Origin: Acholoe squamosa
Lineage: Eukaryota > Annelida > Polychaeta > Phyllodocida > Polynoidae
Direction: 5' to 3'
Length of the DNA: 64,000 nt
Assembly (NCBI GenBank): GCA_949317995.1
Contig: OX439045.1
Span: forward strand, 2,141,174-2,205,173
In this document: in pieces, positions 2,241 to 60,164 of the stretch
How the letters are laid out: each line of letters begins with the position of its first letter
How positions within the stretch are numbered: position 1 is the first letter of the stretch
Position numbers and translations under genes: made by a program
The notes under the pieces: generated by a model
Database searches by the model: none
What the model saw: only the letters and a program-made list of their open reading frames with translations
Told to the model about the DNA's origin: nothing

Positions 2241-2529
2241 TTAGATACTTGGATGTCAAATCCACACCAGGTAGCAGCACTACCTCTGAATGGACTATCT
2301 GTGCACAGTTATAATCAATTGTTGTGACAAATATCCCCAAACTCCTTCTTTATCATAGAGTCATTTCATTGAATGCTATGAAAATATAAACAACAATAGA
2401 AAATTAACTGAATTCAACTGACACCACCATCATTACCATAAAATAATCAATGAGCTCCATGACTTACACCTATGTCATGTTATTTTGTAAGGTATGAAAC
2501 TATGTCCTTCCAGCCAACCTTCAAACAAC

Positions 2530-5500
2530 CTCCAAGCTCCTTGAGAAGATAGTTAGAGACAGAATGGAAGCCTCCCAGAGAGCAAGGCAACATGTCCCAC
2601 CTGAGGAGCAGTATGGATTCCGAGCCCACTGGTCTGCCCAGCATGCTTCCTACACCATGTGGGATCTAATTATGCGACACAAGGGCAATGAAACAGTCGT
2701 TATTTTTCTCGACGTAGAGAAAGCCTTCGAAATGGTGAACCACACTGCTCTCCTTGCTTGCCTAGCTGAAACGGGAGTATCGGGTAAGATAATGAAGTAC
2801 ATGCGTGAGTATCTTGCAGACCGCTCATCCCGCGTCTCGCTCCAGGGAACGTACTCTTTTAATCACCCACTTGAGAATGGCGTTCCTCAAGGGGGAGTCC
2901 TATCCCCTCTCATCTTCAACTGCGTCATGGAGCAAATTCACAAGCTTCGCTTAGGGTAGAATGACCTTGAGTCGTCCAGGTACCTTGAGTCGGCCATTTT
3001 GCTTGGTATTGGGCACAAAATGAATGTGTTAATGAATATATCAGTGGATTCTAAGCTCTTTGCACTGGTGCTATATCGCAAGATATGCTATAAGCTATCT
3101 TAGCCTCTTTTGGAATATAAGTCCAGGACCTTCCAGGAGCTCTAGATGACACTAGAGTTTGTGAATTATTCTTGATTTTCCAGCAACAAAATGATAGATG
3201 AGTGATAATGTGATATTGACCAAGTAACAAAGTTAAACCTAACTAAAATTGGAAAAAAGCATTGCATTCATACTCTGTCAAACATCATTTAACTTGAAAT
3301 TATTCCTTTATAGTGTTCAGTACAAAAGTCAACAATCTGCTGTATAGAAGTTGACTCGTGGTATGACTGGCCCAAGGTGTCTTTGAGCAAAACATGTACC
3401 TTGAGTCAGCTACTATACAAGTACCTTGAGTCAGCCACTATTGCTTTGTGGTCCAAAATGAACTTAGTAGTGACCATTTCATTGGGTTCTAAGTTTTTTT
3501 ACACTGCTAGAATATGTTGAGCTGCAGCACCTGCGATCTTTCCATCTTTGGGAAAGTGAATCTAGCACTATCCATTATTTTTCAACAAAATCAACTATAT
3601 TCTACCAATTAGATAGAGAGGTCTTCTGATAGATTGCCAGCCACTTTGAAATGATGGACAGCTGATAAATGGGGATAAGTTTGCTATAATTTATGTTTAC
3701 CCAAGGAATGGTATTAATCAGAATTATAATTAGTAAAATCATTCCAGAAACATTTTGACCAAGATCACTCAGCCGGGAATAAATGTTTTCCTTGTTTTGC
3801 TTCAAAAGCACACTCTTTACTATGAATTAGTTGAGTCATTTTATGATGTGGCTGACTCAAGGTACCACAGTGACCGACTCATGGTACTGATGAAAGAAAA
3901 TTCACAGCTATTGAATGATGGGTGCTAAAAGAGCTCCATGACTATGGGTATGAAAGTTGTAACATTGCTGGATGGAAAGAGTAAGACATCTGGGTAATAT
4001 CTATATCCATTTTTAGATGACCCCTGCAAGTTTTCCTACTATAACAAAGATCCTAGACTAACTAGTATGTGGTAAGATGAACCAGGTGGACGACTCATGG
4101 TCACTTTACCCTACCCAAGGCTCGCATCTTGTCATATGCCGATGACATTGCCATCTTCGTATCCGACCGCTTGGACGTTCACCCGAATGCGCAAAAAACT
4201 CTCAACATGGTTCATGATGAGTGTCTCAAGTTGGGGCTCAAAATCTCGCCCGAAAAAACCATGGCCATCCCCTTCTTCAAAACCACCCTTGCCCGACCCC
4301 TCTACATGGGTTTTGACCATATACCGGTTTCTACCACCTACAAGTACCTTAGGGTCATCTTCGACTCCAAGCTCACGTTCAAACCCCAACTAGCCTATGT
4401 GGCTGACAGGATGCGCGCCCGTCTGAACATCATGAAGTCCATGGCTGGCCCAACATAAGGGGTCACCTTCGCCCACCTCCGGACTTTCTACAAACAAGCC
4501 ATACTGTCTCTCGTAGACTACTGCGCTCCCCTTCTGTACACAACCCTCAGTCGGGAGGAGACAGAAGTCGGCAGCAGCACTGTTCTTGCCTTTTCCACAC
4601 GCTTCGACGTACTCAACAAGATACAGAATGCAGCCATGCGCATCATAGCAGGAGCCCCCCTCAGGACCAAACTCACCTGCCTCCGGCAGGAGACAGAACT
4701 CCCACCCATCTCCCTTAGGGTCACAGAAACCCCTCTGAAATTCCTGAACACCTTTGCCTCCACCCTAGACAAAAGTCTTGCAAAGGCCATGGCCCATAAG
4801 CTTCAATCTTATACGGAACAGGTCCGCCCGCCACCCACAAAGCACCGCTGCTCTACAAAGACTACCTACTACATTAAGACCTTACACACGGCCGGCGGTA
4901 CCTTGTCAGCCCCTCCCCCACCTCATCCTCACCCCCCTGGTTACCTGGTACCAGCCTCTTTCAACACCCTGTCCCTTCCCTAAAAAGCAGAAACCTCCCC
5001 TCTCATTCTACGCCAATATGCCCTGGAAAACATCAACATGTTGAAAAAGGAGCACCCGAATGCCCTGCACATTTTTACCGATGGCAGTGTGAATCCTGTT
5101 ACTGGGGCTTCCACTGCAGCTGCGGTTCTCCCCGAGTCTGGCGATGAGGTTTCTTGCAAAACCCCCGAGTTCTCATCATCCCTCACCACTGAACTGACAG
5201 CCATTGAGCTTGCCCTGGAGGAGTGGGATCAGGATGTGGTGATCCACTCCGACTCCCTTGGGGCTGTCTCGTCCATCTCCAACCCTAGGCCTTCAACTCT
5301 CCATGTAATGAACATTCAAAGGCAATTCGAAGATCGCAAGAACCGGGGACTCCATACCACCTTCAGCTGGATACCGTCCCATATCTGCATTAAGGGAAAC
5401 GACGCTGCTGACATAGCAGCCAAGACTGCAGCATTACATGGAGGAAACAAGCCTGACAGAACCCCTCCACCCTCCAAAGATCAAGTATCAGCGATCATTG

Positions 5501-5922
5501 GCAGGAAAATTCAAAAACTCAATCTACTCTTGAACCACAAGGAATGCTTACAGCTGCATGATGGTGAAAGGTCCCAGTCCCTCACGTGGAATAACAGGGT
5601 CAGGGAAACCATCCCCCCTATCCCAACTCACCTCCCCCGGATAAACCAACACATAGCTGCCCGCTTCCGCACAGACTACAGAAGAGCTGTAGACTGTGGC
5701 GGTCGTAAGGCATGCACTTGTGGCGCGGCTCGCTTTTCTGCTGCCCATGCGCTCACCGACTGCTCCCTGATGGACTATTCATCCATCCACCACTTATTCG
5801 ATGAGGATACAGTGAACCTTCCCTGCACGGAGGCAGCCCTAGTCATTTTCAGTCGAGCAGCTTGTGAGGGGTATGACCCTCTGATACGCCTGTACCTAGA
5901 TAACCGTGACCTCCTCCTATAG
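2530..5922 (+). pseudogene. LINE ORF2: reverse transcriptase with C-terminal RNase H
   Basis: RT motif A is FLDVEKAFEMVNH (about 2708-2746), motif B GVPQGGVLSPLIFN (about 2881-2922) and motif C YADD (4135 on). A 1158-bp transposon lies between motifs B and C; removing it with one TA rejoins the frame exactly. Downstream is the thumb-like region (KIQNAAMRIIAGA), then RNase H with FTDGSV, the Glu of ELTAIELALEEW, HSDS and GNDAAD, which supply the D-E-D-D set. The same frame runs from 4129 to 5922 with two in-frame TAA codons (4456-4458 and 4981-4983). The tail has a Cys/His cluster (CGGRKACTCG). Such an enzyme would copy element RNA at the target site and degrade the hybrid RNA. This copy is inactive. 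Confidence 0.9.
2954..4111. mobile_element. 1158-bp TIR element flanked by TA, nested in the LINE RT
   Basis: The termini are GGGTAGAATGACCTTGAGTC and the complement of GGTCACTTTACCC, giving an imperfect inverted repeat of about 24 bp. TA is duplicated at 2952-2953 and 4112-4113. Inside each end the word ACCTTGAGTC(A/G)G recurs several times (near 2963, 2981, 3399, 3420, and inverted near 3848 and 3876), giving subterminal repeats. No long ORF is seen, so it is non-autonomous. TA duplication fits a Tc1/mariner-type or similar superfamily. It is younger than the LINE copy it interrupts. Confidence 0.85.
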
Positions 5923-6312
5923 AGGAGTGTTGCAAACAGGAGGCACACCCCCTACCCTCAGTTAGGACAACACCAGAATCATCCTTCTCACTGACACCTA
6001 AACACCTAATACCACCTGTCCCCCACCAGCCGAGATGCTCATACCACTCAAGCTGGTTAACCACAATACCCATCCCCCAAACCTACTATCTCCCCTAGAG
6101 TCTGGCTAAGATGCTCACCATATCACTTGGGCCAACCACACTCTTCTCTCCAAACACTCTCTGCATCACAAACAGGACTGACTAATGCCCAAGGAGTTAG
6201 TCCAATTCCGCTGTCTCTACCCCTATTCACACTATAACTGCCACACCCCAGTAACATGTCATAACCTCCTCCCGCATGCTTAACCACCCCAAAACCTTTG
6301 CTCTTCCAGAAG

Positions 6313-6951
6313 ATGCCACGACGCCTGATCCTCCTGACAGACAGCCAAGGAAGGGGCATCCCCAACTCGCAGTACCTGACCTGCACCTTCAAATCCAGAG
6401 GAAGAGCCCACTACATCCAGGAGCTAATCGACAGGCAGGACATCAGATCTCATGAAGACGTCGCCATTTGGATAGGTGGTAATGACGCACACCCTCGGGT
6501 AGGCCAGTTTAATTCTTCTGCTCTCAGAGAGCACTTCCGCCATGCAGTTCACTGCGTGCGCGGAACTCACCCGACGGCAAATGTCGTCCTTGTGGCAGCC
6601 ACAAAGAGAGGGGTAGAAGCAAAATCCCGCAACATCCAAGCTGTAAACACTATCATTAGAAACGTTGCCCTCGAGTTTAATGTCCCCTTTTCCAATGTGT
6701 ACCGCTCACTCGAGTGTAGATACGGTCACTGCTCCCAGTATTTAAAGGTAAATGAGGGGGTCCATCTGACCCTTAAGGCCAAGCTACAGGTGGTCGAATC
6801 AATTCAACACCAACCGGGAGTGTCAGTTGTACCCAAAAACCCAATTCCCTCCCCCCCCTTCGCCTCTGAGGGTGGCTGGACATGGACACATCCTATCCAT
6901 GTTCTACCCGGCCCCTCTCATCTGGGGCTACAGATGGTTCAGCACTGCTGA
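6313..6951 (+). pseudogene. SGNH/GDSL-hydrolase domain of the LINE accessory ORF
   Basis: I start at the ATG at 6313 (MPRRLILLTDSQGRG). Block I of the SGNH fold is LLTDSQGRG (Ser nucleophile in DS), block III is WIGGNDAHP (Gly-x-Asn-Asp), and block V is NEGVHLTLKAK, where the usual Asp three residues before the His reads Glu. Esterase domains of this fold are known from ORF1 of CR1-type LINEs and are thought to act on lipids or esters; here the domain lies downstream of RNase H. The frame runs past an eight-C run at 6851-6858, after which the sensible reading moves to the next frame and enters NADAR. The likely original product is one SGNH-NADAR protein of about 350 residues, broken here by one base. 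Confidence 0.75.
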
Positions 6952-7372
6952 ACATGCCTACCACTATGAGAAATGCATGAGGGTAGGGGAAATCGGCCAA
7001 GCCCGCGAAGTGCTTATGGCTACCACTCCCAGCCAAGCAAAATCCAAAGGTAAGATCCCGGATAGTCTGATGGACCTTCCCACAAGACGCCTGCTCCTAG
7101 AGGACATCCTTATGGAGCGATGGCGGAGCCAGCCCAGTTTCAGGAATGCTCTGCTGGAATCGGGCTCCAGACCAATCATACACACAGTGAAGGACGCCTT
7201 CTGGGGAGACATAGGTTGGGATGGCACTGGCTTCAATGTATATGGGAAGTCCCTGATGAAAAATGCGCCACATCCTCCCCAGACATTAGACCATACTCCC
7301 TTCAACTCCCCCCGAAAACACCCTACCCCCTCACCACCTCCTACTGAGATGATCACCATACCACTCGAGTAG
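6827..7372 (+). pseudogene. NADAR (YbiA-like) domain of the LINE accessory ORF
   Basis: After a Pro-rich linker the frame reads FYPAPLIWGYRWFSTAEHAY, with the F-x-T-x-E-H motif of NADAR/YbiA proteins. A Lys region (YEKCMRVGEIG) follows, then TTPSQAKSKGK, a helical stretch ending MERWRSQPSFRNALLESG, then VKDAFWGDIG and GTGFNVYGKSLM, which match the D-x-x-WG and G-x-N-x-x-G-K-x-LM signatures. Known NADAR proteins act on ADP-ribose linked to guanine, or on riboflavin-pathway phosphoribosyl intermediates. What it does for a retrotransposon is unknown; removing ADP-ribose from element RNA or cDNA is only a hypothesis. It ends at TAG 7370-7372. The frame differs from the SGNH part by one base at the C8 run. 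Confidence 0.8.
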
Positions 7373-7375
7373 GAC

Positions 7376-7940
7376 ACCCCCCCTCACTCCACCTTGATCC
7401 TCCCCTTCCACACCCTGGTCTCTCCCCCACCTAGGCCCCGGTGCCTATCACCATACCAATTATGGCCTGCCACGGCGCGGTGTACTGTATTGCACCGCCC
7501 ATGGACATGGGTGCCCGGCTGGTCTCACATACACCCCCCGCCCACTTCCACAAGGGGACCAGGCCTTGCACCCTTGACCAAACGCAGGCCAACATTTCGG
7601 TAAATTTCTCGTCTGTGCCCCCTAGGAGTGGATACGCCAGATAGCACTACGATGCACTGGGCTATTGTCCTGCTCCCTGGTTCGGTGACACAGGTAAGAT
7701 CACCCAATCACATGATACACCTTGTTCATACCATAACCAATATACTGTGCTTTTTCTTTTCTTCCTTTTTTTTTCTCTTTTGTTGTTGTTTTTTTTTTTT
7801 GTTTTTGATTTAATTTGTTTTTTGTTTTTTTGTTTTCTCACTCCCCCCTAGCTCCCTCTAGTGTACGGGTCCAGGTTTCACGCCACGGGACCTCTCACCC
7901 TCAACGTGTCCTTGAGGCACATAGGTGAGGTCTAATTCAA
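7376..7940 (+). other. LINE 3' non-coding region, C-rich then T-rich
   Basis: Downstream of the NADAR stop there is C-rich sequence to about 7700, a T-rich tract with T runs at about 7750-7840, and a short GC-rich end. I see no convincing coding frame. It is probably the element's 3' UTR. Confidence 0.5.
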
Positions 7941-8149
7941 AGTAAGTAAGCCAACCTGTTGTACTTCCTCAAGTCTCCTATTCCAATGCAGTGTGTACAT
8001 ATATGTGTATATAGCTGTGGCTGACACCTTGGGAGACTTTGCAATGTAAATACCTGCTGATGTCCTCCAGTAAATGAGAAAACAAACAAAAGATATTCCT
8101 TTATTTTTTTAATGGATACATGTCTGCAAAGCCTCACTTCCCACTAAAT

Positions 8150-8357
8150 CACTTAGACATCTAAACACAAAAATTCATAAACATCTAAATGCAAAATTTC
8201 ATTGATATCTAAACACAAATTTTGAACCTAAATACTTAGATTTCTCAACACTTGAGCTAAGCACATTGTTTGGCTAAACATGTTTAGGAAATTAATGTGA
8301 TTACAAAACATTGCAAGAATATGTTTAGAATTGTGATCTAAACACCATTTTTGCAGT
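8150..8357. repeat. MITE family M4, copy 2
   Basis: It is closely similar to 12090-12295, including TCAGCTAAGCACATTGTTTG-like sequence and the end ATCTAAACACCATTTTTGCAG. Sequence to its left (about 7970-8150) also matches about 11930-12085, so the two regions share a longer segment. It lies in intron 4 of gene B. Confidence 0.65.
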
Positions 8358-8491
8358 TTAAATATCAAAATGACATTAAGCAGTTTTGATTAATTTTTAG
8401 GTATCTTGAAGTTCAATAGGTTTGTTTTTTAAAAGATCCAAAATCATTGGTTATGATCATGATTATGTCATCTGGTTTACGAGGACTTAAC

Positions 8492-8652
8492 CACCACCAC
8501 AGTAGATACAGATATTTCGTTTTCGTCTCGGCCATCATTCTCAGTGCAGAAATGGCCTCCGTCAATGTGTGCCGAATATTCTTTACAATAGTCATTGCTG
8601 ATAACAGTAGCAGTGGCCTGATACAGGAGGAGTGGTTGGTGAAATGCTGAAT
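8492..8652 (-). pseudogene. Gene B exon 4
   Basis: The acceptor TTATACAG leads into a phase-1 exon with LYQATATVISNDYCKEY and GGHFCTEN, matching gene A exon 4 (LHEATVHPISNTHCSN and SHICTDTG). The end is ambiguous: the best phase-0 donor is GTTAAG at 8491, but the conserved Cys just before the donor in gene A (SPCW) is out of frame here (TGTGG), which suggests a small indel. Confidence 0.7.
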
Positions 8653-8912
8653 CTGTATAACATATAGACATCAACAGTAAAATACATACCCACTGGGCAC
8701 TGATTATGAACCAAATGAAAACGCTTTTCTGCCAAGTGGATAAGCAAATGTCCAAGACCATGGGATATATATTTTTGCATTGTACATATTACAAAATGTC
8801 TTATAGGCCTCACCAAAAAGATGCGAAAATATGGTAAAATTTTTTTTTCAAAACATCCTGTCTGGCTCTGTCAGCTGCAGCATGTCATGTGATGGCCATT
8901 GATCACATTTAC

Positions 8913-9603
8913 ATTTTATGTCATGGCTGATATGAACGTCACTATAGATTATTATGTCAAGGTGAATATCAATGCTCCATTGACAATGCACTAAACTTTA
9001 TTGCACCCCTGCATTAAATAACCAGCGCCAAATCCGCACGATGATGTCATAGGTCCACCGCGCATGCACAGCATTTTTGAAACGTAAACATTCAAAATGG
9101 CGGCGGTCAGGATTTCGCGAAGACAATGGTAAATCAGAGTTAATTATGGACTATATTGATGAAATATCGATTGATTTTCCACTCAAACACCTTGACATAA
9201 ATGTAAAGATGAACTCTGATTAGTTTGAGCCTCCTGTTTCTTCACTCGCAGGTCCTGCCCGCTCCGCACTCGGACTACCGGCCTCGTGCGGAACGGGCAG
9301 GACCCTCTCGTGAAGAAACTGTCGGCTCAAACTAATCATCGTTCACCTTTACCATTGTACTAGAACCGCCATATTCAATGGGGGGCATCGAATACAATGT
9401 ATCCATATTCAATGGTTAATTATCACGTGACTCATGTATGATAAAACAAGTTGATTTGTCTATTTAAAGACAAAATAACCTCCTAGGCCATGACATAAAT
9501 GTAAATGTTAACTTCCAAGGAATATTTTTGCATCGCGTTCCCCTCAGTGAGTCGATGCAAAAATATTCCGTGGTCATTGACATTTGCTTATTCCATTGAA
9601 TAC
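8913..9603. repeat. Bipartite foldback element M2 with a related element nested in it
   Basis: The outer element starts TTATGTCATGGCTGATA and ends GACATTTGCTTAT, like the copies at 14710-15044 and 18994-19262. After CACTATAGATTA it is interrupted by an inner element (about 8955-9355) of the same design: a left module bounded by TTATGTCAAGGTG and its complement CACCTTGACATAA (9180s), then a long hairpin whose arms contain TTAGTTTGAGCC and GGCTCAAACTAA. The outer element resumes at GTACTAGAACCGCC. No ORF. It lies in intron 3 of gene B. Confidence 0.75.
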
Positions 9604-9709
9604 GGCAGAGTTAGTCGCCAGAGCTGCATTCCTGCGTCATGGCAACCAATGGACATGATGCATTAATGCAGCAGCCTCGAGAGGGTACTGACATGGAATA
9701 TTGGCTTAC

Positions 9710-9871
9710 CACTAGTAATTCCCCATCCTGTGATATAACACTGAGAGGTGATATATAGTCCTGCATCACTCAGGTCAATGCTATTTATAGTAAAACTCAG
9801 CTCCAGAGGTGCTTCAAGACAGCGATGTCATTGAATTTGCGGAGGCCACAGCTGCTGTAATTGCCATGATG
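9710..9871 (-). pseudogene. Gene B exon 3 (frameshifted)
   Basis: The exon reads HGNYSSCGLRKFNDIAVLK, then shifts one base to continue APLELSFTINSIDLSDAG and CYITGWGITSG up to the donor GTAAGC at 9709. NDIAVL holds the Asp102 position. Comparison with gene A places the start near 9871, but no AG dinucleotide precedes it there, so the acceptor looks lost. The phase at the donor is 1, as in gene A. Confidence 0.8.
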
Positions 9872-9964
9872 TAATCAGAAGAAAAAGGGGTTTCTAGCAG
9901 AGATGATTTCCTGAAGACATTCAGTTTTTGTAATGTTTAAAACTACACTTAATTAAATTACAGT

Positions 9965-10930
9965 GAGTTGGCATGATGCACCAATGAGTCTCCCCAGCAC
10001 TTCATTGGTGCATCACATGAACAATGGGCTTGAAGTATTAATGCATCAGGGACCCTTAAAGAGCCGATTTTGAGGATGGTCTGTGGTTACACTCATAAGC
10101 TATCCATTTCAATTACTCTTTCAAAGCCTACTGACTGGAGAAATAATCCATAGGAACACTATAAATTCACCATAAGTTGTATGTATTGCCCAATCAATGT
10201 AATCTAACATATACTATGATACATACATAAACTATTTCCTGCACTGTTCAGACTGTGCCCTCTGTTCTGTCCAGACTCCCAAATCTGATCCCATATGGTG
10301 GACTGAAACGATATAAGAAAAACTACCTGATTTACAAGTACATCAGCCATGGTTTCCGAGGTTTTGCTTGACTGCTGCCGGAAGCAATGGCAATGGGTAA
10401 ACAGGGCCATAGTATAGTGACATAAAGTGTAACAACGCATAGAAAGTGATAGATAGAGGCACACGTGAGTGAGTGAGTAATAGAGGTTTAACACCATTTC
10501 GACAGCTAAGGTCATATTCATGGCGAGAACTACATTACACAATTTTACAGAGGTATGTGTCGGTGCCCGCACATAGCTGCACCACACACATCCGAGAGGA
10601 TAGGAAAGAAGAGATATAGACCCTTTTAAGTGGGCTAGGGAAGCCCATGATGCACAAGTGATTCTGCTTATGCCAAATGTGCATCATGAATCGATGTACC
10701 CCATGTTTAACCCTTTAAGAGTCGTTGATGCATTAATACATTATGCCCATGATGCACCAATGAAGTGTTTGCTTGATTGCTTGAAAGCACTTTATTAGAG
10801 CATCATGCCAACCCTCCAGGAGTTTATGTATCAACCTTTAAGGTCAGCATGATGCTCCCATAAATAATTGGCGGGCAGTCTTGCAAGCACTTCATTGGTG
10901 CATCATGATGACCAATGGGCATGATGCACT
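9965..10930. repeat. Several copies of a GCATGATGCACCAATGA-type short inverted repeat
   Basis: The words CATGATGCACCAATGA and CTTCATTGGTGCATCATG occur in both orientations near 9972, 10008, 10677, 10746 and 10890; related words are at about 9640, 57645 and 59850. They look like ends of small foldback elements in introns 1 and 2 of gene B and elsewhere. Exact boundaries are not clear. Confidence 0.5.
10227..10302 (-). pseudogene. Gene B exon 2 (in-frame stop)
   Basis: The 76-nt exon runs from acceptor TTTCAG to donor GTATGT, identical in length and splice sites to gene A exon 2. In the ancestral frame it reads PPYGIRFGSLDRTEGTV, then TGA where gene A has CGA (Arg). In the frame produced by the exon 1 deletion the exon stays open, but the sequence is not protease-like. 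Confidence 0.85.
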
Positions 10931-11770: not shown

Positions 11771-12089
11771 ACCAACTCCAATTTGACCCCTCGGCTCACA
11801 ATCTTTTATGAAAAGAAAAAAGAGGCATTAAAGGTGTGTGTTGTTAACAAGAAAGAATGAAGTAAAAATGGAACTGTTAAACAGAACCATACCTGGGCCC
11901 ATACCTATTATACAGATGACAAATGATATAAAAGAGACTATTTGTCTCTTGTACTTTCTCGTTCTGATGCAGCGTGTAATACCTGTACACGTATATAGCT
12001 GTGGCTGTAAATGAGAAAACAAACAAAATATATCTCTTTTTTTTAATGCATTCATGTCTGCAAACCTTAACTCTCCATCAAATCATTTA

Positions 12090-12295
12090 AACATCTACAC
12101 ACAAAATTTCATAAACACTAAAATTCCTAGATATCTAAACACAATGTTTTAACCTAAACACCTACATTTCTAAACACTTCAGCTAAGCACATTGTTTGGC
12201 TAGACATGTTTAGGAAATTAATGTGATTACAAAAAACGTTGCAATAATATGTTTAGAATTGTGTTTTGGATCTAAACACCATTTTTGCAGTGCTT
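12090..12295. repeat. MITE family M4, copy 3
   Basis: It is closely similar to 8150-8357 and ends ATCTAAACACCATTTTTGCAG. It lies just downstream of the gene A polyadenylation signal. Confidence 0.65.
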
Positions 12296-12382
12296 ATGAG
12301 TCCAACTTTACATATTTTTATTAGAGGCCTCAGAAAAAGAAATACAAAAGACTATTTGGAAAGGTCCAGGTTTCCTGGTATC

Positions 12383-12388
12383 TTTATT
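12383..12388 (-). terminator. AATAAA polyadenylation signal of gene A
   Basis: AATAAA on the minus strand, 21 bases downstream of the gene A stop codon, in the context CATCAATAAAGATACCAGG. The context at gene B is similar (CATCAATAAAGACACCAAA). Confidence 0.75.
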
Positions 12389-12408
12389 GATGCATCATTT
12401 GACATATG

Positions 12409-12570
12409 TTAAACACCAGTTTTCTCCTTAATCCACTGCCTGAAGTATGACACACGAGTGTAGACTGGGTAGTAGTAGTGGGAGGAACAGGTCTCGTCCT
12501 GCCAGGAACTGATGCCATACAGCTTTGGCTGACCAAGATCCAAGCAAACCAAGGGGCCGCCTGTGTCACC
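12409..12570 (-). pseudogene. Gene A exon 5 (GDTGGP, C-terminus)
   Basis: The acceptor CTTCCGACAG precedes GGTGACACAGGC, read GDTGGPLVC: Thr stands where the catalytic Ser should be. The 53 residues end PVYTRVSYFRQWIKEKTGV with a stop. Phase 0, so residue 192 is Trp from exon 4 (CW, then GDTGG). The reading frame is fully open. Confidence 0.9.
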
Positions 12571-12599
12571 CTGTCGGAAGATAACATTCATGAAACACA

Positions 12600-13300
12600 G
12601 ACTCAGGGGAAGACACTAGCCTTTTGAGCCATGGGCCACCCGGGCCTGCACCTTCAGAAATTCACGGGCCCACATCTAAATCTGCGGGCCCAGCACATGT
12701 ATTCACATTAGAGGAAAAGGTAATTCTAAGTATTTGTAATTAATATATATCATGATTTGAATAGAATGCCTGAATTCTTAACCATTTTCTCTTTCCAACG
12801 ATATATAACATGACTATATTGACCTGTGTATCAATTTGTAAAAACTGCCTTCAGCCACATCTGTGGGCCACCTGGGCCCATAGGAAGATATTTTTTTAAA
12901 TAACTGTCGGCCCGGACCAAGAATTACGGGCCATTCGCTCCCGGGCCAGCGCTAGTGTCTACCCCTGCAGACTGTAAAAGGAATAGCTGTTATCATCATT
13001 ATTATTTATTGAACGAGCTTGTCCCTAATGGACGTTTTTTTTCCACCAGCCATGTGGTGAGAAAACAATATGCTCACAGTATCATATTTCCATATGTCAA
13101 TGACAATCTGTTGTCACATTGTCCATGAGTAAAACGTCACACAGTGGGGTTATTCATCCATGTTAATATAACAAAGCCAGCGCCCAAGACAATAAAGTTA
13201 AATGATTTACAATACTAAACCAGATGTTAACATACCAAAGTATGTATCCTCTACAGCCACACTTAAACATTTAGTTTATAGGTTACTTATAAAATCAAGC
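12600..13300. other. Intron 4 of gene A with GGGCCC-rich repeat
   Basis: Between exons 5 and 4 of gene A, 12610-12960 holds a segment rich in GGGCC words in both orientations (GGGCCACCCGGGCC near 12640 and its relatives near 12860-12950), with the look of an old inverted-repeat element. I see no coding sequence. Confidence 0.45.
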
Positions 13301-42155: not shown

Positions 42156-44642
42156 TTAGTCTAGTAGATTAAGCCCTTTTGGTGTGATGCTACTTAGGCG
42201 GTGCATCCACCTCCTTTCTTCTTGATTCCTCTCAGCATCCCCCTCTGGTGTTTTGGGGGGATGTTTGATGAAACTGAGGACACTGATAGAGACTCCTTTT
42301 TCCCATAGGAGAGGTTTGTCGGCCGGACAGCTATTAAAATGTCTTGCGACTGTGGTGTCCTCGGCCTTGTCTATGTCATTCATATGACGACCAAGCCTAT
42401 CCAGGAGTCTTCTCTCAGTTTGGCCTACATATTGGATGCCACATCCTTTGCATGTAATTGCATAAATGATGTTGGCACTCTGACAATTTACATTATAGAG
42501 GGTTCTGAATTTTCTGCCAGTGGTTTTGGAAGAAGTGATGTAGCCTGTCTTATTAATTTTAGGGCAGTACTGGCAGGTGTATATCCGATTACATGGAAAT
42601 TGCAGAACATGAGGCCTTTTCTTTTTAGGGTCTCTGCTCGTAGAAGCTCGGACCAGTTCATCTTTGAGAGATTTATTTCTCCTCTTGCCAAAAATAAGTT
42701 TTGTATCATGATATACCCTGGTGACCTTTGATTTTAGCATAAGGTCCCAGTTTTGTCGTACAATGTCCTCTAACGGAGGATTTGCGGGATTGTGTGTCAG
42801 GATACAGTAGAATGCCTTGGTTTTATCTTGGGGTTTTTCTTTGATTTGTAGTAGCTTAGATCTGTCTTGGGACTCTGCTCTGACCAAGGCATTGAAAATT
42901 AGGTTTTTTGGGTAACCACATCTTAGGAAATGAGTGCAGAGCATTAGGGAGTTACGTCTGAATTCCGACACAGTGGAACAGATCCTTCTTACCCTAAGGA
43001 ACTGTGAGTATGGGATGCCTAACAAGGTGTGTCGGGGATGTTCAGAAGAGAACAGTAAATAGTTGTGGCTGTCAGTGGGTTTGCAGTATAGGGTAGTTTG
43101 TATGTGCCCTAAGCTATTGGCCATGACTTTAATGTCTAGGAAATTGATCTCTCTGAGCGAGTGTTCTAAAGTAAATTTGATGGTTTTGTGACAGCCATTG
43201 AGATGGTCAACAAATTTGAGTAGTGATTCCTCGCCATGGGTCCAGATGAGGAAAATGTCGTCAATGTAATGCTTCCAGAAGAGAGGCTGTTGGCGATAAG
43301 TGTATACATTATTCTCTTCGAAGCTTCCCATGAATATATTGGCATAAGACGGGGCCAACCTTGTGCCCATGGCTGTGCCACTGACTTGTAGGAAGTGTTT
43401 ATTGTCAAACTCAAAATTGTTGCATGTAAGCACAAGCTTTAGTAGTTTGCAAATGGAGTAATTGGTTGGGTTTTCATTTGGATGTCTATTGGTGGATAAA
43501 CATTTTCTTACTGCCTCAATCCCCTCTAAGGTGGGGATGTTCGTGTAGAGGCTGGTTACATCCAAAGTGGCTAGAATAGCATTTTTAGGTAATTTGAGAT
43601 CTTTGATCTTGTTAAGGAAGTCAGTACTGTCTCTCAAATATGACTTTAGTTGGCCTACCAAGGGTTGCAAGAAATGGTCCACTAATTGGGAAATACATTC
43701 TGTAGGGCAGCCATTGGCAGAGACTATGGGTCTACCAGGTGGAGGAATTGTGTTTTTATGAATCTTGGGTAAAAGGTATAGTTTGGCTGTACGTGGGTTA
43801 GGGACTATTAAGTAGTCGCCCACTTGGTGGCTGATTTCACCAAAATTGTACATTTCAGAGACTGCTTGGGTGACTAGGGCATTGTGGAAGGGGGTTAGGT
43901 CAGTTTCTTGCAACCTGGCATTTAATTGACGGAGTCCCTCCTTGATGTAGTCGGCCTTATTTTGGATGACTACTGCTGACCCTTTGTCTGCCTTTTTGAT
44001 TATTATCTCTTTATTTAGACTGAGACTTACTTTGGCTTCCCTTTCCGCAGGTGTTATGTTGGATCTGTGGTATGGGGTAATTAACTCTTCATCCAGTTGG
44101 GCTAAGTTGAGAAAGCACATATGTTCTACTATAGGGGGGCCGATAGGTTTCCATAGAGATGGATTTTTGAATTTCCTGTTAAAGAAGGGGGGTTGTATAT
44201 GGCTTAGGTTTGGAGCATCAACATTAGGGTCAATGTTTTCAAATTTGGAAATGGCTAATTCCCTCTTGATACTAAGATGAAACTTAGCAAGGTCTTCAAA
44301 TAGCATACCGGGGTCTGGCGGTGGAGGGGTGCAGACGAAGGTGAGACCCTTTTGTAATAGACTAAACTCACCATCGGTGAGCTGATGGTCTGAAAGATTC
44401 ACAACACCTGAAAAACTTTTAAGAGCTTTATTGTTGGTGCTGGAAATATTTGAGTTGTCATTTACATTTTGGTGATGAAACAAAGGTGGTAAGTAGTCGA
44501 TACATAGGATTGCGAATGAGATTACAAAATCCGTATCGAGAAACAGTTCATCAGTCCAGTCCTTTATAGTTTTTTCTAAAAATTGGTATTGACAATTGGT
44601 TGCATGGTCAACATAAGGTGTCTTTGAGAAACAATCTAGCAT
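42156..44642 (-). CDS. Penelope-like ORF2: reverse transcriptase with GIY-YIG endonuclease
   Basis: I chose the ATG at 44642 because it overlaps the ORF1 stop as ATGCTAG; the frame is open further back to 44828, but those 62 codons overlap ORF1 and show nothing conserved. From this start the protein has 828 residues. Counted from the upstream limit of the frame, conserved blocks are KKADKGSAVVIQ (278-289), YLLPKIHK (351-358), GRPIVSANG (365-373), RT motif A TLDVTSLYTNIP (421-432), motif B QVSGTAMGTRLAPS (481-494), motif C YIDD (521-524), Cys residues 746, 752, 755 and 782, and a GIY-YIG-type nuclease with IIYAITC (787-793) and IQYVGQTERRLLDR (798-811), with a later Glu in the helix around 870. 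It would nick DNA and copy element RNA. No stop or frameshift is seen, so it may be active. Confidence 0.92.
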   Translation of the reverse strand: MLDCFSKTPYVDHATNCQYQFLEKTIKDWTDELFLDTDFVISFAILCIDYLPPLFHHQNVNDNSNISSTNNKALKSFSGVVNLSDHQLTDGEFSLLQKGLTFVCTPPPPDPGMLFEDLAKFHLSIKRELAISKFENIDPNVDAPNLSHIQPPFFNRKFKNPSLWKPIGPPIVEHMCFLNLAQLDEELITPYHRSNITPAEREAKVSLSLNKEIIIKKADKGSAVVIQNKADYIKEGLRQLNARLQETDLTPFHNALVTQAVSEMYNFGEISHQVGDYLIVPNPRTAKLYLLPKIHKNTIPPPGRPIVSANGCPTECISQLVDHFLQPLVGQLKSYLRDSTDFLNKIKDLKLPKNAILATLDVTSLYTNIPTLEGIEAVRKCLSTNRHPNENPTNYSICKLLKLVLTCNNFEFDNKHFLQVSGTAMGTRLAPSYANIFMGSFEENNVYTYRQQPLFWKHYIDDIFLIWTHGEESLLKFVDHLNGCHKTIKFTLEHSLREINFLDIKVMANSLGHIQTTLYCKPTDSHNYLLFSSEHPRHTLLGIPYSQFLRVRRICSTVSEFRRNSLMLCTHFLRCGYPKNLIFNALVRAESQDRSKLLQIKEKPQDKTKAFYCILTHNPANPPLEDIVRQNWDLMLKSKVTRVYHDTKLIFGKRRNKSLKDELVRASTSRDPKKKRPHVLQFPCNRIYTCQYCPKINKTGYITSSKTTGRKFRTLYNVNCQSANIIYAITCKGCGIQYVGQTERRLLDRLGRHMNDIDKAEDTTVARHFNSCPADKPLLWEKGVSISVLSFIKHPPKTPEGDAERNQEERRWMHRLSSITPKGLNLLD

Positions 44643-47512
44643 TTCTGCAGCATCTGGCGAAGTTGGGCCAGCTCTGATTGGGTCAAGTTGGGACTGCTGG
44701 TTGTTTGGTTGCGTGGGGTGTTCCTGTTGTTGCCTCTTCCCCGTGCTTGATTGGTTGATTGGGGAGATTGGTCTGAGGAACGTGGGTTGCGAGGGCGAGT
44801 GGGTGTTTGAGTGCGGCGGTTCCCACATTGCCGTCTTGTCACTCGTACTCTGGGTGGGCGATTCCAGGCAGTGGCAAAAACCTGCCCAGTGGCAGTGTTG
44901 TTACGGGGTGGGGTGGTTTCCAATTGTATCAAGGGTGAGACCTGATTGGCGGAAGTAAGGTCTCTGTTTGGAATGTTCATTTGTACCACTCCACTGTAGG
45001 AGGGTATGGGTTGGCCTGTAGCTTGCACGTTGCTAGGAGCGTTGGTGGAGTTAGTTTGTGTAGTGGGAGTGGTTGTGCTTGAGTAGCCCGGGCGTAGATC
45101 TACTGGGATGCCAATCCACAGGGCATCTTCAGGTGAGGCTTTTAGGGCCTTGGACTCTTCACCGAGTTTCTGATTGAGGTCAGCGCTCTCTCTCTCGACC
45201 AAATGGCGTGCAAGTTGGTTTGCAGAATTGAGATCATAGTAGCCAGGTTGTCCAAGGGGAATGGTTTGGTTTGCGTAGGCATTGGCTACTGCCTGCCAAT
45301 AATAGTCACTGCTTGACCTCAGGGCACTAGAGCGGTCATCTAGAATAGATGCCATGGTATTTAGGGTCGAAGTGGCCTGCTGTCTGCGAAGGGTGACTAG
45401 CCTAAGTGCTCCTTCGATGGTGGTGATTAGGCCGGTGGGAGGGAGGACTCCTCCAGTCCATTGAAGGAACCTACCAGCACGTGCCATGTGGCGGAAAAAG
45501 TCAGCTCTGATCCGGGAGAAGGCAGAGCGCTGATAGATTGACCTATATAGCCTCCAGTGGTCTAAAGCCTCTGGTAGGATTGATGTGTAATAGGCTTGTT
45601 TAGTACCAGTATTCTCCAGGTTGATGGGTATGTGATGGGCTGGAGTTATTGTGTCCCGAATGGGGGTGTCTAACTGGGTATTGGTAGCTCCTGAGGGTGG
45701 GGTAGACATAGGTGCGGAGCTGGGGTTCAGAGGATTACTGAGGGCAGCTATATCAATTTTAGTATTTGAGAGTGCTGCAGCCAAGGATTTAAGGTCCAGT
45801 GAGCCGATTTCTGGGTTAGTGGCTGATTGATCAATGATCCGCTGAAGAATGACAGCCTGCTGGGCTGAATTGAGTTCTGGAAATTTGGCAGTGTTGTTGT
45901 TAGTGTCTGCCTGTGGCACGAAAGTGGGGTTGGAGAAAGTGGGTCCCGTGGGAGTGGGGGCACTAGAGGTGTCGGCAGATGATGTTGCCACAACAGTAGG
46001 TGAAGATCTCCTCCTAAAGAAGGAAATAATGGGGGCTGTTCCATGGAGAGTGGTTGTACGGTGTTGCGGCAGAGTGGGCTCTAGGTCGGGCCTGTGAGAA
46101 GGACCAGCAACAGGAGAAGCTGGGGTCACTGTCAATGCTGGGGCCGTAGTCACCGTGGTGGTGGTGTCCATGTTTTCCTGAAAAGTGACAGATCGAGCAT
46201 TAATGAGGTCAAAATTTTCATTTGTGCTAAATGTGACCTTAAGGGGCACTCTTTCAGGGCGTTGGGGTGAGTCAAAGTGAGGTATGACTACTGGGGTGTT
46301 GTTGGGTACCAACTTTAATTGTTTGGGCGGCGGCAGCATGGTTGGGACAGGGGCAAGATTCTGGACAATGCTGTATGTGTGAGTGGAAGTGGTGTTAGTG
46401 GTTCCTGTACTCATGGGCTTTAGAAAGCTCAGTAGGTTGCTCGGGGTGCTGTTAGTAGTTTGTGAAGTATCTACAAGTGTGGGGCGAGCTGTGGTGGTCA
46501 CTGCAGTAGTAAAAGTTGAGTAGTAAGTCACAAAAGTTTCCAAGGTGTCGTGGACAGTTGTCTTAGGAACAGTTTGTGGTACTACAGGTGGCAAATTAGG
46601 CTGTAAGGGGTTAAAGTATGGCCGTGACTGCAGTGAGCCGGTTGTTATCCGGTCAGCAGTGGCGGGAAATCTGTTAGTGTCTAAAGTAGGTCGGGGAATC
46701 CCACCATGTTGAGGGGAATCCATGATCATGTGTACTGGAATTGGCGTTCCCAGAGGTCGGGTCACATTTGGATTCCATGGCAAAAGGACATTGTTAGTGG
46801 AAGTAGCCCTTATGTTTGGCCGATTTTGGACAACAACTGTCGATGTGAGACAGGTAGGTGTTAAGTTGTCAACATTTATTGGATGTGTAAAGGTACCTGC
46901 CTCTGTGTTTGTGTCATGCCACCAAATGGGGTCGGTAGCACGGCTTCTGCTAACGTTTTGGTAGTTGGTGGCGTTAGTGTCCTCCCAGAATGTGCGCTCT
47001 AAGTTGCGTACTGGATTCTGTGGGGAATATGAATTATTTTTATTATTGTCATTTGTCAATGAAGGAACAATGAAAGCATCGGTAGTTGTGGGACTGGGAT
47101 TATTTGATGCGAGGGCCCAGCTTCGGCTTCGTGTCACTCGCTGAGAGGGGGTGTGGTCAGATGGGGCCGTTGCTAGGTTACGCGCTTCATTGTTGTTAAC
47201 AACTTCCGGGTTGTCCGGTGTCAAGTTTGTGTTTTCGATCGGCGAAGGGCCTCTCGATGGCGTGAAATAACTTAATAAAGAAGCTTGTCTGGAATTTGAT
47301 AAACTCACCTCCTTATTGGGGTCTTCTTGAGCTATATCAATGCCCATAGCGTGACATAACTGGGTTAGAGTGCCTGAGTCAGCTGTTTGAGTGTTGCTAC
47401 CATCAGGCTGACTGGAGTTGTCAGTTATGGCAGAGGGTTGCGTATCTTCTAAGTTTGGGGCGTGGCGTTGTGATAAATCACCCTCCGATGCAGTTTGTCT
47501 ATTAGCAGACAT
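44636..47512 (-). CDS. Penelope-like ORF1, gag-like protein of 958 residues
   Basis: The frame starts at an ATG in good context (TGCACCATGT), about 93 bases inside the complete copy, and ends at the TAG at 44638-44636. Much of the protein is Ser/Thr/Pro/Asn-rich and probably disordered. A region in the third quarter (EALDHWRLYRSIYQRSAF to LARHLVERESADLNQKLG) looks helical and folded. The C-terminus is Arg/Gln/Asn-rich (TRPRNPRSSDQ, ARGRGNNRNTPRN) and could bind RNA. Residues 76-83 (QASLLSYF) match the PCNA-interacting PIP-box pattern; TAPIISFFRRR (492-502) is a weaker match. Its role is probably packaging of element RNA, inferred by analogy with other retroelement ORF1 proteins. I do not recognise a named domain. 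Confidence 0.75.
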   Translation of the reverse strand: MSANRQTASEGDLSQRHAPNLEDTQPSAITDNSSQPDGSNTQTADSGTLTQLCHAMGIDIAQEDPNKEVSLSNSRQASLLSYFTPSRGPSPIENTNLTPDNPEVVNNNEARNLATAPSDHTPSQRVTRSRSWALASNNPSPTTTDAFIVPSLTNDNNKNNSYSPQNPVRNLERTFWEDTNATNYQNVSRSRATDPIWWHDTNTEAGTFTHPINVDNLTPTCLTSTVVVQNRPNIRATSTNNVLLPWNPNVTRPLGTPIPVHMIMDSPQHGGIPRPTLDTNRFPATADRITTGSLQSRPYFNPLQPNLPPVVPQTVPKTTVHDTLETFVTYYSTFTTAVTTTARPTLVDTSQTTNSTPSNLLSFLKPMSTGTTNTTSTHTYSIVQNLAPVPTMLPPPKQLKLVPNNTPVVIPHFDSPQRPERVPLKVTFSTNENFDLINARSVTFQENMDTTTTVTTAPALTVTPASPVAGPSHRPDLEPTLPQHRTTTLHGTAPIISFFRRRSSPTVVATSSADTSSAPTPTGPTFSNPTFVPQADTNNNTAKFPELNSAQQAVILQRIIDQSATNPEIGSLDLKSLAAALSNTKIDIAALSNPLNPSSAPMSTPPSGATNTQLDTPIRDTITPAHHIPINLENTGTKQAYYTSILPEALDHWRLYRSIYQRSAFSRIRADFFRHMARAGRFLQWTGGVLPPTGLITTIEGALRLVTLRRQQATSTLNTMASILDDRSSALRSSSDYYWQAVANAYANQTIPLGQPGYYDLNSANQLARHLVERESADLNQKLGEESKALKASPEDALWIGIPVDLRPGYSSTTTPTTQTNSTNAPSNVQATGQPIPSYSGVVQMNIPNRDLTSANQVSPLIQLETTPPRNNTATGQVFATAWNRPPRVRVTRRQCGNRRTQTPTRPRNPRSSDQSPQSTNQARGRGNNRNTPRNQTTSSPNLTQSELAQLRQMLQKC
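47264..47287 (-). other. PIP-box-like motif in ORF1
   Basis: The codons read Q-A-S-L-L-S-Y-F, fitting Q-x-x-(I/L/M)-x-x-(F/Y)-(F/Y). The motif lies in a disordered-looking, Ser/Pro-rich segment, as functional PIP boxes often do. A second, degenerate version (T-A-P-I-I-S-F-F then RRR) lies at 46039-46016. Confidence 0.45.
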
Positions 47513-47605
47513 GGTGCAGGTTGATAAGTAATGGTTGGGGTGATGAATGAGGAAAGTAGGGCGGGTGGGGAAATGTCAGGGAAGGGTTTTCTTTGCTAAA
47601 TAGCT

Positions 47606-49780: not shown

Positions 49781-49926
49781 TCCATAAAAAAAATCAAGGG
49801 AAAAACTGTCAAATCTACCAGGGAACCCCGAAAGTATGGTGGTAGACAAATGAGCAAGACATCTCTGTGAAAATAATGATGTATCTCTGGAAACATCGGG
49901 ACAAGGATTCCACCGTTATTTTAACA

Positions 49927-54857: not shown

Positions 54858-56224
54858 CTGTGATGTAGAATGTACAAGGCTGAGTCTTATACAAGTGTAG
54901 GGGGCAGCTCTGGCTGTAAGTCCATGGCGGTAGGCCATCTGCCCTGTTCTGGTTGCACCAGCCCTCAGGGGCTCGTCAGCCGGTATAAGCTGCCCCCCTT
55001 GTGTATTATACCGATCCAGATGTAGGTGGAAGGTAGAGAATGTCAGACGGGAAAGTAGCTCAGCGGTAGAGCTTCCGCCTGCAGGTTGGAGGGTCCCGGG
55101 TTCGACTCCCGGTTTCTCCAGGAAGTTTTCCGCCGACCTCTACACTGGTGGAGAAACCGAGTTGGTCCTGCCCTGCAAGGGGGGACTAGGAGAACTCGGT
55201 ACCTGGGCTGGTGTGACATGAATGACAATTCAATTTGCTAGTGCTGGGAGGAGACTTGGTGGTTGGGCACAACTTAGTACTAGTCCCGGGTATCTGGTAC
55301 CTATAGGGTACTGAACCCTATATTGAATCTGGTAGGGAGGAGTGTAGGGGCCAGCTCTGTCGTAAGGCCAGCAGCCCCGTTTCTGGAGATCCCAGCCCCC
55401 AGGGGCTGGCATCCGGTGGTAGCTCCCCCCTATGTGTGTGTCATACCAATCCAGGTGTAGGTGCCTGGAACGGTATAATACAGATACGCTTCGACCCTGG
55501 CAGTACTGTGTACTGGTAGGTCAACTGGGAAGTCAGGAGTGCCTCACACTGCTTGATAAAGCCCAACCGATCTGGTTGGGAGGAATGCTTGGTGCTGGTT
55601 GGCCATGGTTGAAGCTGGTTGGGAGGAGTGTAGGGGCCAGCTCTGGCTGTAAGTCCATGGCGGTAGGCCATCTGCCCTGTTCCGGTTGCACCAGCCCTCA
55701 GGGGCTGGTCAGCCGGTATAAGCTGCCCCCCTTGTGTATTATACCGATCCAGATGTAGGTGGAAGGTAGAGAATGTTAGACGGGGAAGTAGCTCAGCGGT
55801 AGAGCTTCCGCCTGCAGGTTGGAGGGTCCCGGGTTCGACTCCCGGTTTCTCCAGGACGTTTTCCGCCGACCTCTACACAAGTGATGCAAAGTAGAAAATC
55901 TGTTTCTGACGGGTTTCTGACCAGCTGCTATATCTAGCTGAAGGATGATTCTATCAAAAACAGGAATCCTCTGGGGCCCTATGAGGGATATTTGATAGTT
56001 TTTTTTCTGTCGTTGTCTCATGGAATTCTGCTGTTACCTGCACCTGGTCAGAAACCTCCTCGGTCAGTAACCAGTCAGAAACATTTACACTCAGACTTGC
56101 ATCTGAGTGGTAGGACATAGCCACAAAATAGGAACAAGCAAAGATTCATTGTCACCTGAGTGATTACTTTGGTAGTGAATGAATGTATACATAATCTGAG
56201 ACTGAGATTTGGAGATTTGTACCA

Positions 56225-59840: not shown

Positions 59841-59965
59841 CATTTCCACATCACGCCCATTGGTTGTCATGCTGCAGGAATGCACCCAGGACAAATAGGT
59901 CTCCATGGTTACGATTCAGGCACTGCGCAGACTATACTAGGGGCCTTGCACTTACAGAGGTCCAG

Positions 59966-60158: not shown

Positions 60159-60164
60159 TGAAGT

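What the first reader, a model, noticed from the sequence alone, without database searches (positions are those of the whole stretch)
5038..7372. Non-LTR retrotransposon with RNase H followed by an SGNH-hydrolase/NADAR accessory protein
Seen in the sequence: RT and RNase H, then on the same strand after 390 bases a frame with SGNH blocks (LLTDSQGRG, GGND, EGVH) leading into NADAR signatures (TAEHAY, FWGD, GFNVYGKSLM). Known: esterase domains occur in ORF1 of some LINEs, and NADAR proteins act on ADP-ribosylated guanine or related N-glycosides. The combination placed 3' of RNase H is, as far as I know, not a standard LINE architecture. Inference: the element may carry an ADP-ribose eraser that protects its RNA or cDNA from host ADP-ribosylation, or uses it in RNA processing.
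Basis: partly seen in the sequence, partly recalled or inferred. Interest (0 to 1): 0.85.

Follow-up and report, generated by a model that had tools for sequence, protein, structure and literature searches.

The report
Retrotransposon carrying an ADP-ribose-removing enzyme gene
A worn-out copy of a jumping gene carries, behind its copying enzymes, reading frames for an esterase-like protein and for an enzyme domain of a kind that strips ADP-ribose off nucleic acids, perhaps to protect its own RNA or DNA; each part is known from other jumping genes, but this arrangement looks new.

Summary
Real, with corrections. The window holds a decayed, 5'-truncated copy of a non-LTR retrotransposon: RT (2498-2953 and 4114 on, split by a DNA transposon at 2954-4111) and RNase H (ORF end 5922). 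After 390 bases, same strand, come an SGNH-like frame (6313-6951) and a NADAR frame (domain 6893-7261). They are not one frame. NADAR is secure (PF08719 42.6 bits, cut-off 35.1; model pLDDT 85.8; best PDB match a NADAR with ADP-ribose) and keeps E28, K35, D109 and W112, but this copy departs at 5 of 12 nearly invariant columns. SGNH is weaker (30.9 bits, cut-off 32.9).

No host genome or eukaryote collection was available, so collinearity in other copies is untested. For one element: composition, a tail-like sequence (8070-8093) downstream of NADAR, and a repeated, covarying RNA hairpin found in this window only on the two sides of the SGNH-NADAR frames. Against: no target-site duplication found; one copy.

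NADAR in LINE ORF1 (oyster Tx1) and Gypsy, and GDSL/SGNH ORFs in CR1, rotifer LTR elements and Athena, are in print. The RT-RNaseH then SGNH-NADAR order appears to be a new variant. Likely role: removing ADP-ribose from element nucleic acid (inferred).

The parts
2498..2953 (+). RT, 5' part (homology from about 2519); element 5'-truncated here
   Evidence: PF00078 72.9 bits, residues 8-148 of the frame; GC rises from 34% to 49% at about 2500
2954..4111 (.). later insertion: non-autonomous DNA transposon with terminal inverted repeats, flanked by TA, splitting RT
   Evidence: TIR alignment; TA on both sides and the RT frame is the same on both sides; AT-rich
4114..5922 (+). rest of ORF2: RT 3' part and RNase H domain (5059-5433); one frame with in-frame stops at 4456 and 4981
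   Evidence: PF00078 29.8 bits, PF00075 52.4 bits; stops; RNase H residues in TDGS, TELTA, HSDS, PSHI, GNDAAD (motif roles recalled); weak sequence match to HIV RNase H in the PDB, E 0.00063
6023..6063 (+). RNA hairpin U1 in the spacer
6099..6142 (+). RNA hairpin U2 in the spacer
6313..6951 (+). SGNH-like frame: candidate S11, G30, N57, E148, H151
   Evidence: PF13472 E 4.9e-7, 30.9 bits, below the cut-off of 32.9; residue positions
6770..7372 (+). NADAR frame; domain 6893-7261
   Evidence: PF08719 42.6 bits; phrog_1017 60 bits; TIGR02464 36.7 bits, below its cut-off of 73.7; model and fold match; sequence-only match to YbiA in the PDB weak, E 0.019
7337..7380 (+). RNA hairpin U1' (overlaps the end of the NADAR frame)
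7432..7474 (+). RNA hairpin U2' (weakest of the four; breaks several pairs of the common register)
7475..8069 (+). 3' untranslated region, with a T-rich tract at about 7745-7840
8070..8093 (+). probable 3' tail of the element; the exact end is uncertain (8093, or as far as 8357)
   Evidence: similarity to a second locus at 12007-12291 runs through the tail and 264 bases of flank

Best explanation
A single 5'-truncated, decayed copy of an RNase H-bearing non-LTR retrotransposon whose 3' part held an extra gene (ORF3) for an SGNH-like esterase domain and a NADAR domain. Shown: order, strand, domains, NADAR fold and four active-site residues, and hairpins on both sides of ORF3. Inferred: that it is one element; that the domains were made as one protein or as two overlapping frames; that NADAR hydrolyses ADP-ribose from guanine (or a related N-glycoside) on the element's RNA or cDNA, undoing host ADP-ribosylation; that the SGNH-like domain acts on acyl groups or membranes; and that the hairpins are element signals (translation of the downstream frame, or RT/ORF3 binding).
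For: Domains on one strand in one block of 49-58% GC (250-base windows 2501-3000 and 4251-7750; the window over the insertion edge, 4001-4250, has 46%), against 28-45% in the windows of 1-2500 and 8001-10000. Third-position GC 0.55-0.68 in the RT and RNase H pieces, 0.57 in SGNH, 0.62 in NADAR, 0.46 in an unrelated Penelope-like ORF of this window. A tail-like sequence lies at 8070-8093, downstream of NADAR, and recurs at a second locus; LINE copies are made from their 3' end (established knowledge), so a 5'-truncated copy ending there most simply contained NADAR. Spacer 6000-6139 aligns with 7316-7473 (101 of 163 columns identical; 4 of 500 spacer shuffles and 0 of 1000 UTR shuffles reach the score). 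The repeated unit is a hairpin with 4 of 8 pairs changed on both sides (3 of 500 shuffles reach this; slid registers give 0-1). A covariance model finds its four training units and nothing else in 64 kb at E below 0.6. NADAR: E28 in 121 of 121 relatives, K35 104/113, D109 110/119, W112 119/122, G121 117/117, N123 116/117, G126 116/116, all kept here. E28 and K35 have the 7-residue spacing of E88 and K95 of E. coli C7 NADAR; K95 is essential for efficient hydrolysis there (PMC11543638, passages).
Against: One copy only. No target-site duplication: between 2380-2560 and 8060-8140 the best ungapped repeats are three 7-mers; an end at 8357 was not tested. No 5' end, endonuclease or ORF1. The lack of long A runs in the spacer (longest 4) does not discriminate, since the tail region also has at most 4. 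SGNH and NADAR are in different frames. SGNH is below Pfam's cut-off, and its candidate acid is Glu, not Asp. NADAR departs at 5 of the 12 nearly invariant columns of A3 (W70 is Leu, M77 Leu, K84 Arg, R133 Ala, one Glu column gapped); the Trp is, by recall, one that YbiA needs. In C7 NADAR the E88A change had only a minor effect in vitro, though E88Q was inactive. The hairpin statistics rest on four units (the weakest breaks several pairs), on a structure drawn from those same units, and on shuffles that ignore relatedness. The function is carried over from relatives of 21-32% identity. The Penelope-like ORF has third-position C 0.31, the same as the first RT piece, so composition is a weak argument.
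Confidence: 0.6

Rival explanations
1. Two elements side by side: the SGNH-NADAR stretch is the ORF1 remnant of another LINE (for example a Tx1-type element, whose ORF1 NADAR domains are reported from oyster), inserted in or rearranged next to the end of an RNase H LINE.
For: NADAR in ORF1 of C. gigas Tx1 LINEs (PMC12477816, passages); LINE esterases are described in ORF1 (PMC3905857, passages); no TSD of the whole was found.
Against: A LINE remnant with ORF1 but no ORF2 and yet a 3' tail needs an extra deletion. No boundary was recognised in the spacer by eye, though the A-run count does not discriminate. Hairpins of one family lie on both sides. GC is continuous.
Confidence: 0.23
2. Tandem or rearranged copies of one family: RT-RNaseH plus 3' UTR of one copy, then ORF1 (SGNH-NADAR) plus 3' UTR of a second copy that lost ORF2. 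SGNH-NADAR would then be ORF1, and the repeated hairpins two copies of one 3' UTR.
For: Explains the duplicated hairpin pair.
Against: The repeat is 101 of 163 columns identical and does not continue past 6139/7473 (rest of spacer against rest of UTR: score 21, reached by 348 of 500 shuffles). Copies that far apart by neutral decay should not still carry mostly open frames (inference).
Confidence: 0.1
3. A processed (retrotransposed) copy of a host SGNH-NADAR gene landed in the LINE 3' UTR.
For: NADAR proteins occur in many invertebrates (PMC11125620, passages); the stretch has no introns.
Against: No poly(A) was seen after NADAR and no short duplication flanks it (longest exact repeat between 5923-6312 and 7262-7760 is 10 bases, and that is hairpin core). 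The flanking repeat is long and diverged.
Confidence: 0.05

Closest known systems
Tx1 LINEs of Crassostrea gigas with a NADAR (YbiA-like) ORF1, and Ectocarpus Gypsy elements with NADAR at the N-terminus of Pol (PMC12477816, passages)
   Same: A retrotransposon carries a NADAR domain; RNA processing was suggested as its role.
   Different: There NADAR is in ORF1 or at the start of Pol; here it is 3' of RT-RNaseH with an SGNH-like frame. Tx1 belongs to the L1 group without RNase H (recalled).
Esterase (SGNH) ORF1 of CR1/L2/RTEX LINEs, e.g. zebrafish ZfL2-1 (PMC3905857, passages; clades also in PMC5408684, passages)
   Same: SGNH-type motifs; spacing Ser to His 140 here, 139 in ZfL2-1; acid and His three apart in both.
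   Different: ORF1 position there, 3' ORF here; Asp there, Glu here. The only PDB sequence match at E up to 1 was a repeat match to tau (E 0.00073), taken as spurious.
GDSL ORF3 of bdelloid Vesta LTR elements and Athena/Terminon elements (PMC5408684, passages)
   Same: A GDSL/SGNH gene placed downstream of pol, shared between unrelated retroelements.
   Different: LTR and Penelope-like elements; no NADAR in the text (0 occurrences).
NADAR in polyproteins of invertebrate positive-strand RNA viruses (PMC9503650, passages; BFVD hits)
   Same: Same fold beside an RNA-copying polymerase; proposed to counter host ADP-ribosylation.
   Different: RNA viruses, not retroelements. The best BFVD match (30% identity, 1184-residue entry) has no name in the tool's tables.

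Membership tests
Non-LTR retrotransposon with RNase H | RT domain | tested here: met
   PF00078 in both pieces
Non-LTR retrotransposon with RNase H | RNase H C-terminal to RT in one ORF | tested here: met
   PF00075; one frame 4114-5922 with two stops
Non-LTR retrotransposon with RNase H | no LTRs | tested here: met
   blastn of 2301-8300 against the window (E up to 1e-3) shows no pair of direct repeats on the two sides of the element
Non-LTR retrotransposon with RNase H | endonuclease and ORF1 upstream | tested here: inconclusive
   copy truncated at about 2519
Non-LTR retrotransposon with RNase H | target-site duplication | tested here: inconclusive
   only 7-mers between the flanks tested; uncertain 3' end (8093 or 8357) and age may hide one
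Non-LTR retrotransposon with RNase H | clade by RT tree | not testable with these tools
   no reference LINE RT set
NADAR superfamily | profile above curated cut-off | tested here: met
   PF08719 42.6 against 35.1
NADAR superfamily | YbiA fold | tested here: met
   8bau E 9.8e-5, 2b3w E 2.1e-4; model pLDDT 85.8, built on an alignment of NADARs
NADAR superfamily | conserved Glu and Lys of the active site; Asp and Trp of the DxxW motif | tested here: met
   E28, K35, D109, W112
NADAR superfamily | near-invariant Trp of the W70 column | tested here: not met
   Leu here; not strictly defining, since the phage NADAR P0001 has Phe there
NADAR superfamily | charged catalytic residue in the last strand | tested here: inconclusive
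   in-frame residues after LM depart from the family
YbiA riboflavin-intermediate N-glycosidase (TIGR02464) | equivalog cut-off | tested here: not met
   36.7 against 73.7 bits
SGNH hydrolase | profile above curated cut-off | tested here: not met
   30.9 against 32.9 bits, E 4.9e-7; hence called SGNH-like
SGNH hydrolase | S, G, N, H residues in order | tested here: met
   S11, G30, N57, H151; G30 is a candidate by position only
SGNH hydrolase | Asp of the triad three before His | tested here: not met
   Glu148 stands there
SGNH hydrolase | fold | tested here: inconclusive
   single-sequence model failed, pLDDT 34.5
CR1/L2 esterase ORF1 or Tx1 NADAR ORF1 | located 5' of ORF2 | tested here: not met
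   frames lie 3' of RNase H

The most novel reading that the evidence does not exclude
A lineage of RNase H LINEs acquired a two-enzyme third gene (SGNH-like plus NADAR) downstream of RNase H, bracketed by the element's own duplicated, covarying RNA hairpins. It would be a transposon-borne counter-defence that removes ADP-ribose from guanine in the element's RNA or cDNA, possibly exchanged with invertebrate RNA viruses that carry NADAR beside their polymerase.
Probability: 0.3. Interest if true: 0.75.

Novelty: new variant of a known kind. Interest (0 to 1): 0.5.

Why it matters
Guanine ADP-ribosylating enzymes exist in butterflies and shellfish (pierisins, CARP-1; PMC11543638, passages), NADARs hydrolyse guanine-linked ADP-ribose in vitro, and the role of animal NADARs is unclear (PMC11125620, passages). 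A NADAR kept by a retrotransposon next to its copying enzymes would suggest that ADP-ribosylation of nucleic acid acts against transposons, which could be tested directly. The hairpins that bracket the gene give a handle for finding full-length relatives.

Tried and rejected
Other copies: no genome is held. Viral-contig scans with the RNase H ORF, the NADAR frame and the SGNH frame gave 14, 3 and 3 pattern matches but no relative. A degenerate RNase H motif gave 0 matches in viral contigs and 0 in genome contigs; that it fits the window's own letters was checked by eye only. tblastn of six ORF pieces against the window found only themselves and weak matches, best E 0.025 over 40 columns. These collections are viral or prokaryotic, so the misses say little about animals.

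Bacterial SGNH-NADAR fusions: none seen. All 123 loci gave a NADAR ORF, and no ORF in them matched the SGNH frame at E up to 1. The SGNH query is itself divergent, so this is a weak negative.

SGNH structure: single-sequence model useless. SGNH against phages: 7 records at E 0.04-0.09, taken as noise. SGNH against PDB: one match, tau, E 0.00073, taken as spurious. SGNH in NCBIfam: nothing at E up to 1; in PHROGs: a head-decoration family at E 0.0097 and a tail-fibre family at 0.32. NADAR against PDB by sequence: YbiA at E 0.019 only, plus two unrelated chains. Rfam: only two tRNA matches in the window, nothing at E up to 1 in 5900-8200.

Idea that the second tail at 12007 reflects duplication of the protease gene: dropped, because the segment sits at different places relative to the exons. 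Idea that the element sits inside a MITE with ends at 2031 and 8357: left open, since only the end motif is clearly shared.

Literature: searches (listings: 20 of 104, 20 of 8451, 15 of 15, 15 of 19, 0 of 0, 15 of 42, 12 of 27, 15 of 179, 8 of 23 papers). Passages read in PMC12477816, PMC5408684, PMC9503650, PMC11543638, PMC11125620, PMC9303266, PMC7998251, PMC3905857, PMC6338049; no paper was read whole. In those listings and passages I saw no report of SGNH with NADAR in a LINE, or of NADAR 3' of RNase H. This is not exhaustive, and Repbase was not available.


Full report
What is there. The window looks eukaryotic: by eye it has trypsin-like exons, and it holds a Penelope-like ORF with RT and weak GIY-YIG, and two tRNA-Cys-like sequences. 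No genome is held for it. On the + strand from about 2498 to 8093 lies a retrotransposon copy. RT homology starts at about 2519 (PF00078, 72.9 bits), stops at 2953, and resumes at 4114 (29.8 bits) after a 1158-bp AT-rich insertion that has terminal inverted repeats and a TA on each side; the RT frame is the same on both sides. From 4114 to 5922 ORF2 stays in one frame with in-frame stops at 4456 and 4981, and holds RNase H at 5059-5433 (52.4 bits). The copy has no 5' end, so endonuclease and ORF1 cannot be judged.

The SGNH and NADAR frames. After 390 bases, 6313-6951 gives an SGNH-like protein (PF13472 E 4.9e-7, 30.9 bits against a cut-off of 32.9). Candidate residues S11, G30, N57, E148 and H151 have spacings near those of the zebrafish ZfL2-1 esterase (S143, G165, N195, D279, H282; PMC3905857, passages), but the acid is Glu. 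The overlapping frame 6770-7372 gives NADAR (PF08719 42.6 bits against 35.1; phrog_1017 60 bits). The switch lies between 6771 and 6893, probably at the C8 run 6851-6858 in a Pro-rich linker. It may be decay, an assembly error, a programmed shift, or two genes; one copy cannot tell. After the LM motif the in-frame residues leave the family pattern.

NADAR quality. I fetched 80 prokaryote and 43 viral-contig relatives. Of 30 columns in which one residue holds at least 70% of the rows with a letter (at least 60 of 123), the window carries the common residue in 22 (my count from the table). One departure is N11 (M here; N in 93 of 95 rows). Kept are E28 (121/121), K35 (104/113), D109 (110/119), W112 (119/122), G121, N123 and G126. 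E and K stand 7 apart, as E88 and K95 of E. coli C7 NADAR; there K95 is essential for efficient hydrolysis, while E88A had a minor effect and E88Q was inactive in vitro (PMC11543638, passages). D and W stand 3 apart, as D343 and W346 tested in worm SNA-3 (PMC9303266, passages). In the 50-row alignment A3 the window departs at 5 of 12 nearly invariant columns: W70 is Leu, M77 Leu, K84 Arg, R133 Ala, and one Glu column is gapped. The Trp is, by recall, one of the residues YbiA needs, so this copy may be inactive whatever the family does. A model built on those 50 rows (49 of the 80 genome loci plus the window) has mean pLDDT 85.8. Foldseek's only PDB matches at E up to 0.001 are Phytophthora NADAR with ADP-ribose (9.8e-5) and E. 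coli YbiA (2.1e-4). In BFVD 26 of 95 matches reach E 0.001: 18 are called NADAR (phages and giant viruses), one 'swarming motility protein', one an RNA-virus polymerase (Ingleside virus), and six have no name (which lists 50 of the 95). It is not a YbiA equivalog by NCBIfam (36.7 against 73.7 bits).

One element or two? For one: GC of 49-58% from 2501 to 7750 outside the insertion and its edge window, against 28-45% around it; third-position GC in SGNH and NADAR (0.57, 0.62) within the range of RT and RNase H (0.55-0.68), with one unrelated ORF at 0.46; a tail-like TAAATGAGAAAACAAACAAAA downstream of NADAR. Decay is broadly comparable: two stops and one insertion in ORF2, one frame change and probably a second in about 1.06 kb of ORF3. 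Then an unexpected finding: spacer 6000-6139 aligns with 7316-7473 (score 45; 101 of 163 columns identical, 28 gap columns; 4 of 500 spacer shuffles and 0 of 1000 UTR shuffles reach it; three coding stretches of the element score 24-30). The similarity does not extend further (348 of 500 shuffles reach the score of the remainder). The repeated core GAGATGCTCACCATACCACTC sits in a hairpin. Over the four units 78.1% of cells pair and 4 of 8 pairs change on both sides (3 of 500 shuffles; slid registers 0-1). A covariance model trained on them finds only those four clearly in 64 kb; the next best match has E 0.6. Caveats: four units, the structure was drawn from these same units, the shuffles ignore relatedness, and the weakest unit breaks several pairs. 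Against one element: no target-site duplication (an end at 8357 not tested), one copy, and an uncertain 3' end, since a second locus at 12007-12291 shares both the tail and 264 bases beyond it.

Mechanism. Most likely: a polycistronic LINE RNA gives ORF2 and a 3' ORF3. NADAR would remove ADP-ribose from guanine, or a related N-glycoside, in the element's RNA or cDNA. NADARs from several sources do this on model substrates (PMC11543638, PMC11125620, passages), and guanine-modifying enzymes occur in butterflies and shellfish. The SGNH-like domain may serve membrane or acyl chemistry, as proposed for LINE esterases (PMC3905857). The hairpins may help translation of the downstream frame or bind RT or ORF3. 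The application of all this to the present element is inference. Alternatives for NADAR: clearing small ADP-ribose derivatives, or RNA processing as suggested for Ectocarpus and oyster elements (PMC12477816).

Comparison and novelty. NADAR in retrotransposons is in print: oyster Tx1 ORF1 and Ectocarpus Gypsy (PMC12477816). GDSL/SGNH genes downstream of pol are in print for rotifer LTR and Athena elements (PMC5408684), and SGNH in ORF1 for CR1, L2 and RTEX. New here, as far as the searches listed under Tried and rejected show, is RT-RNaseH followed by SGNH-like and NADAR frames, bracketed by covarying hairpins. I rate it a new variant of a known kind, interest 0.5: solid anatomy, single dead copy, untested collinearity.

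Noticed in passing
2954-4111: A 1158-bp non-autonomous DNA transposon with matching inverted ends (ending in TGAGTCGTCCA inward) and a TA on each side, inserted in RT.
   Followed up: partly
8070-8357 and 12007-12291: Retrotransposon tail plus 264 bases of flank shared by two loci (83% identity); the common end motif also occurs inverted at 2031-2053. Origin unclear: 3' transduction, nested MITE, or a longer 3' UTR.
   Followed up: partly
1660-1900, 8520-8680, 12370-12610 (minus strand): Exons resembling trypsin-like proteases by eye; the GDSGG motif reads GDNGG and GDTGG in two of them, so the catalytic Ser appears lost (motif recalled; no family search was completed).
   Followed up: partly
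42156-47575 and 48389-49915 (minus strand): Penelope-like element with RT and weak GIY-YIG (21 bits, cut-off 22.6) and an overlapping 979-aa frame with no Pfam match; a second partial copy lies at 48389-49915.
   Followed up: no
55049-55120 and 55782-55853: Two tRNA-Cys-like sequences (Rfam 46.7 and 52.3 bits), each opposite a near-identical 'EKPGVEPGTLQPAGGSSTAELL' frame, perhaps tRNA-derived SINEs.
   Followed up: no
59828-60196: A + strand frame with a tandem six-residue repeat (HDAKV plus H, R, L or Q).
   Followed up: no
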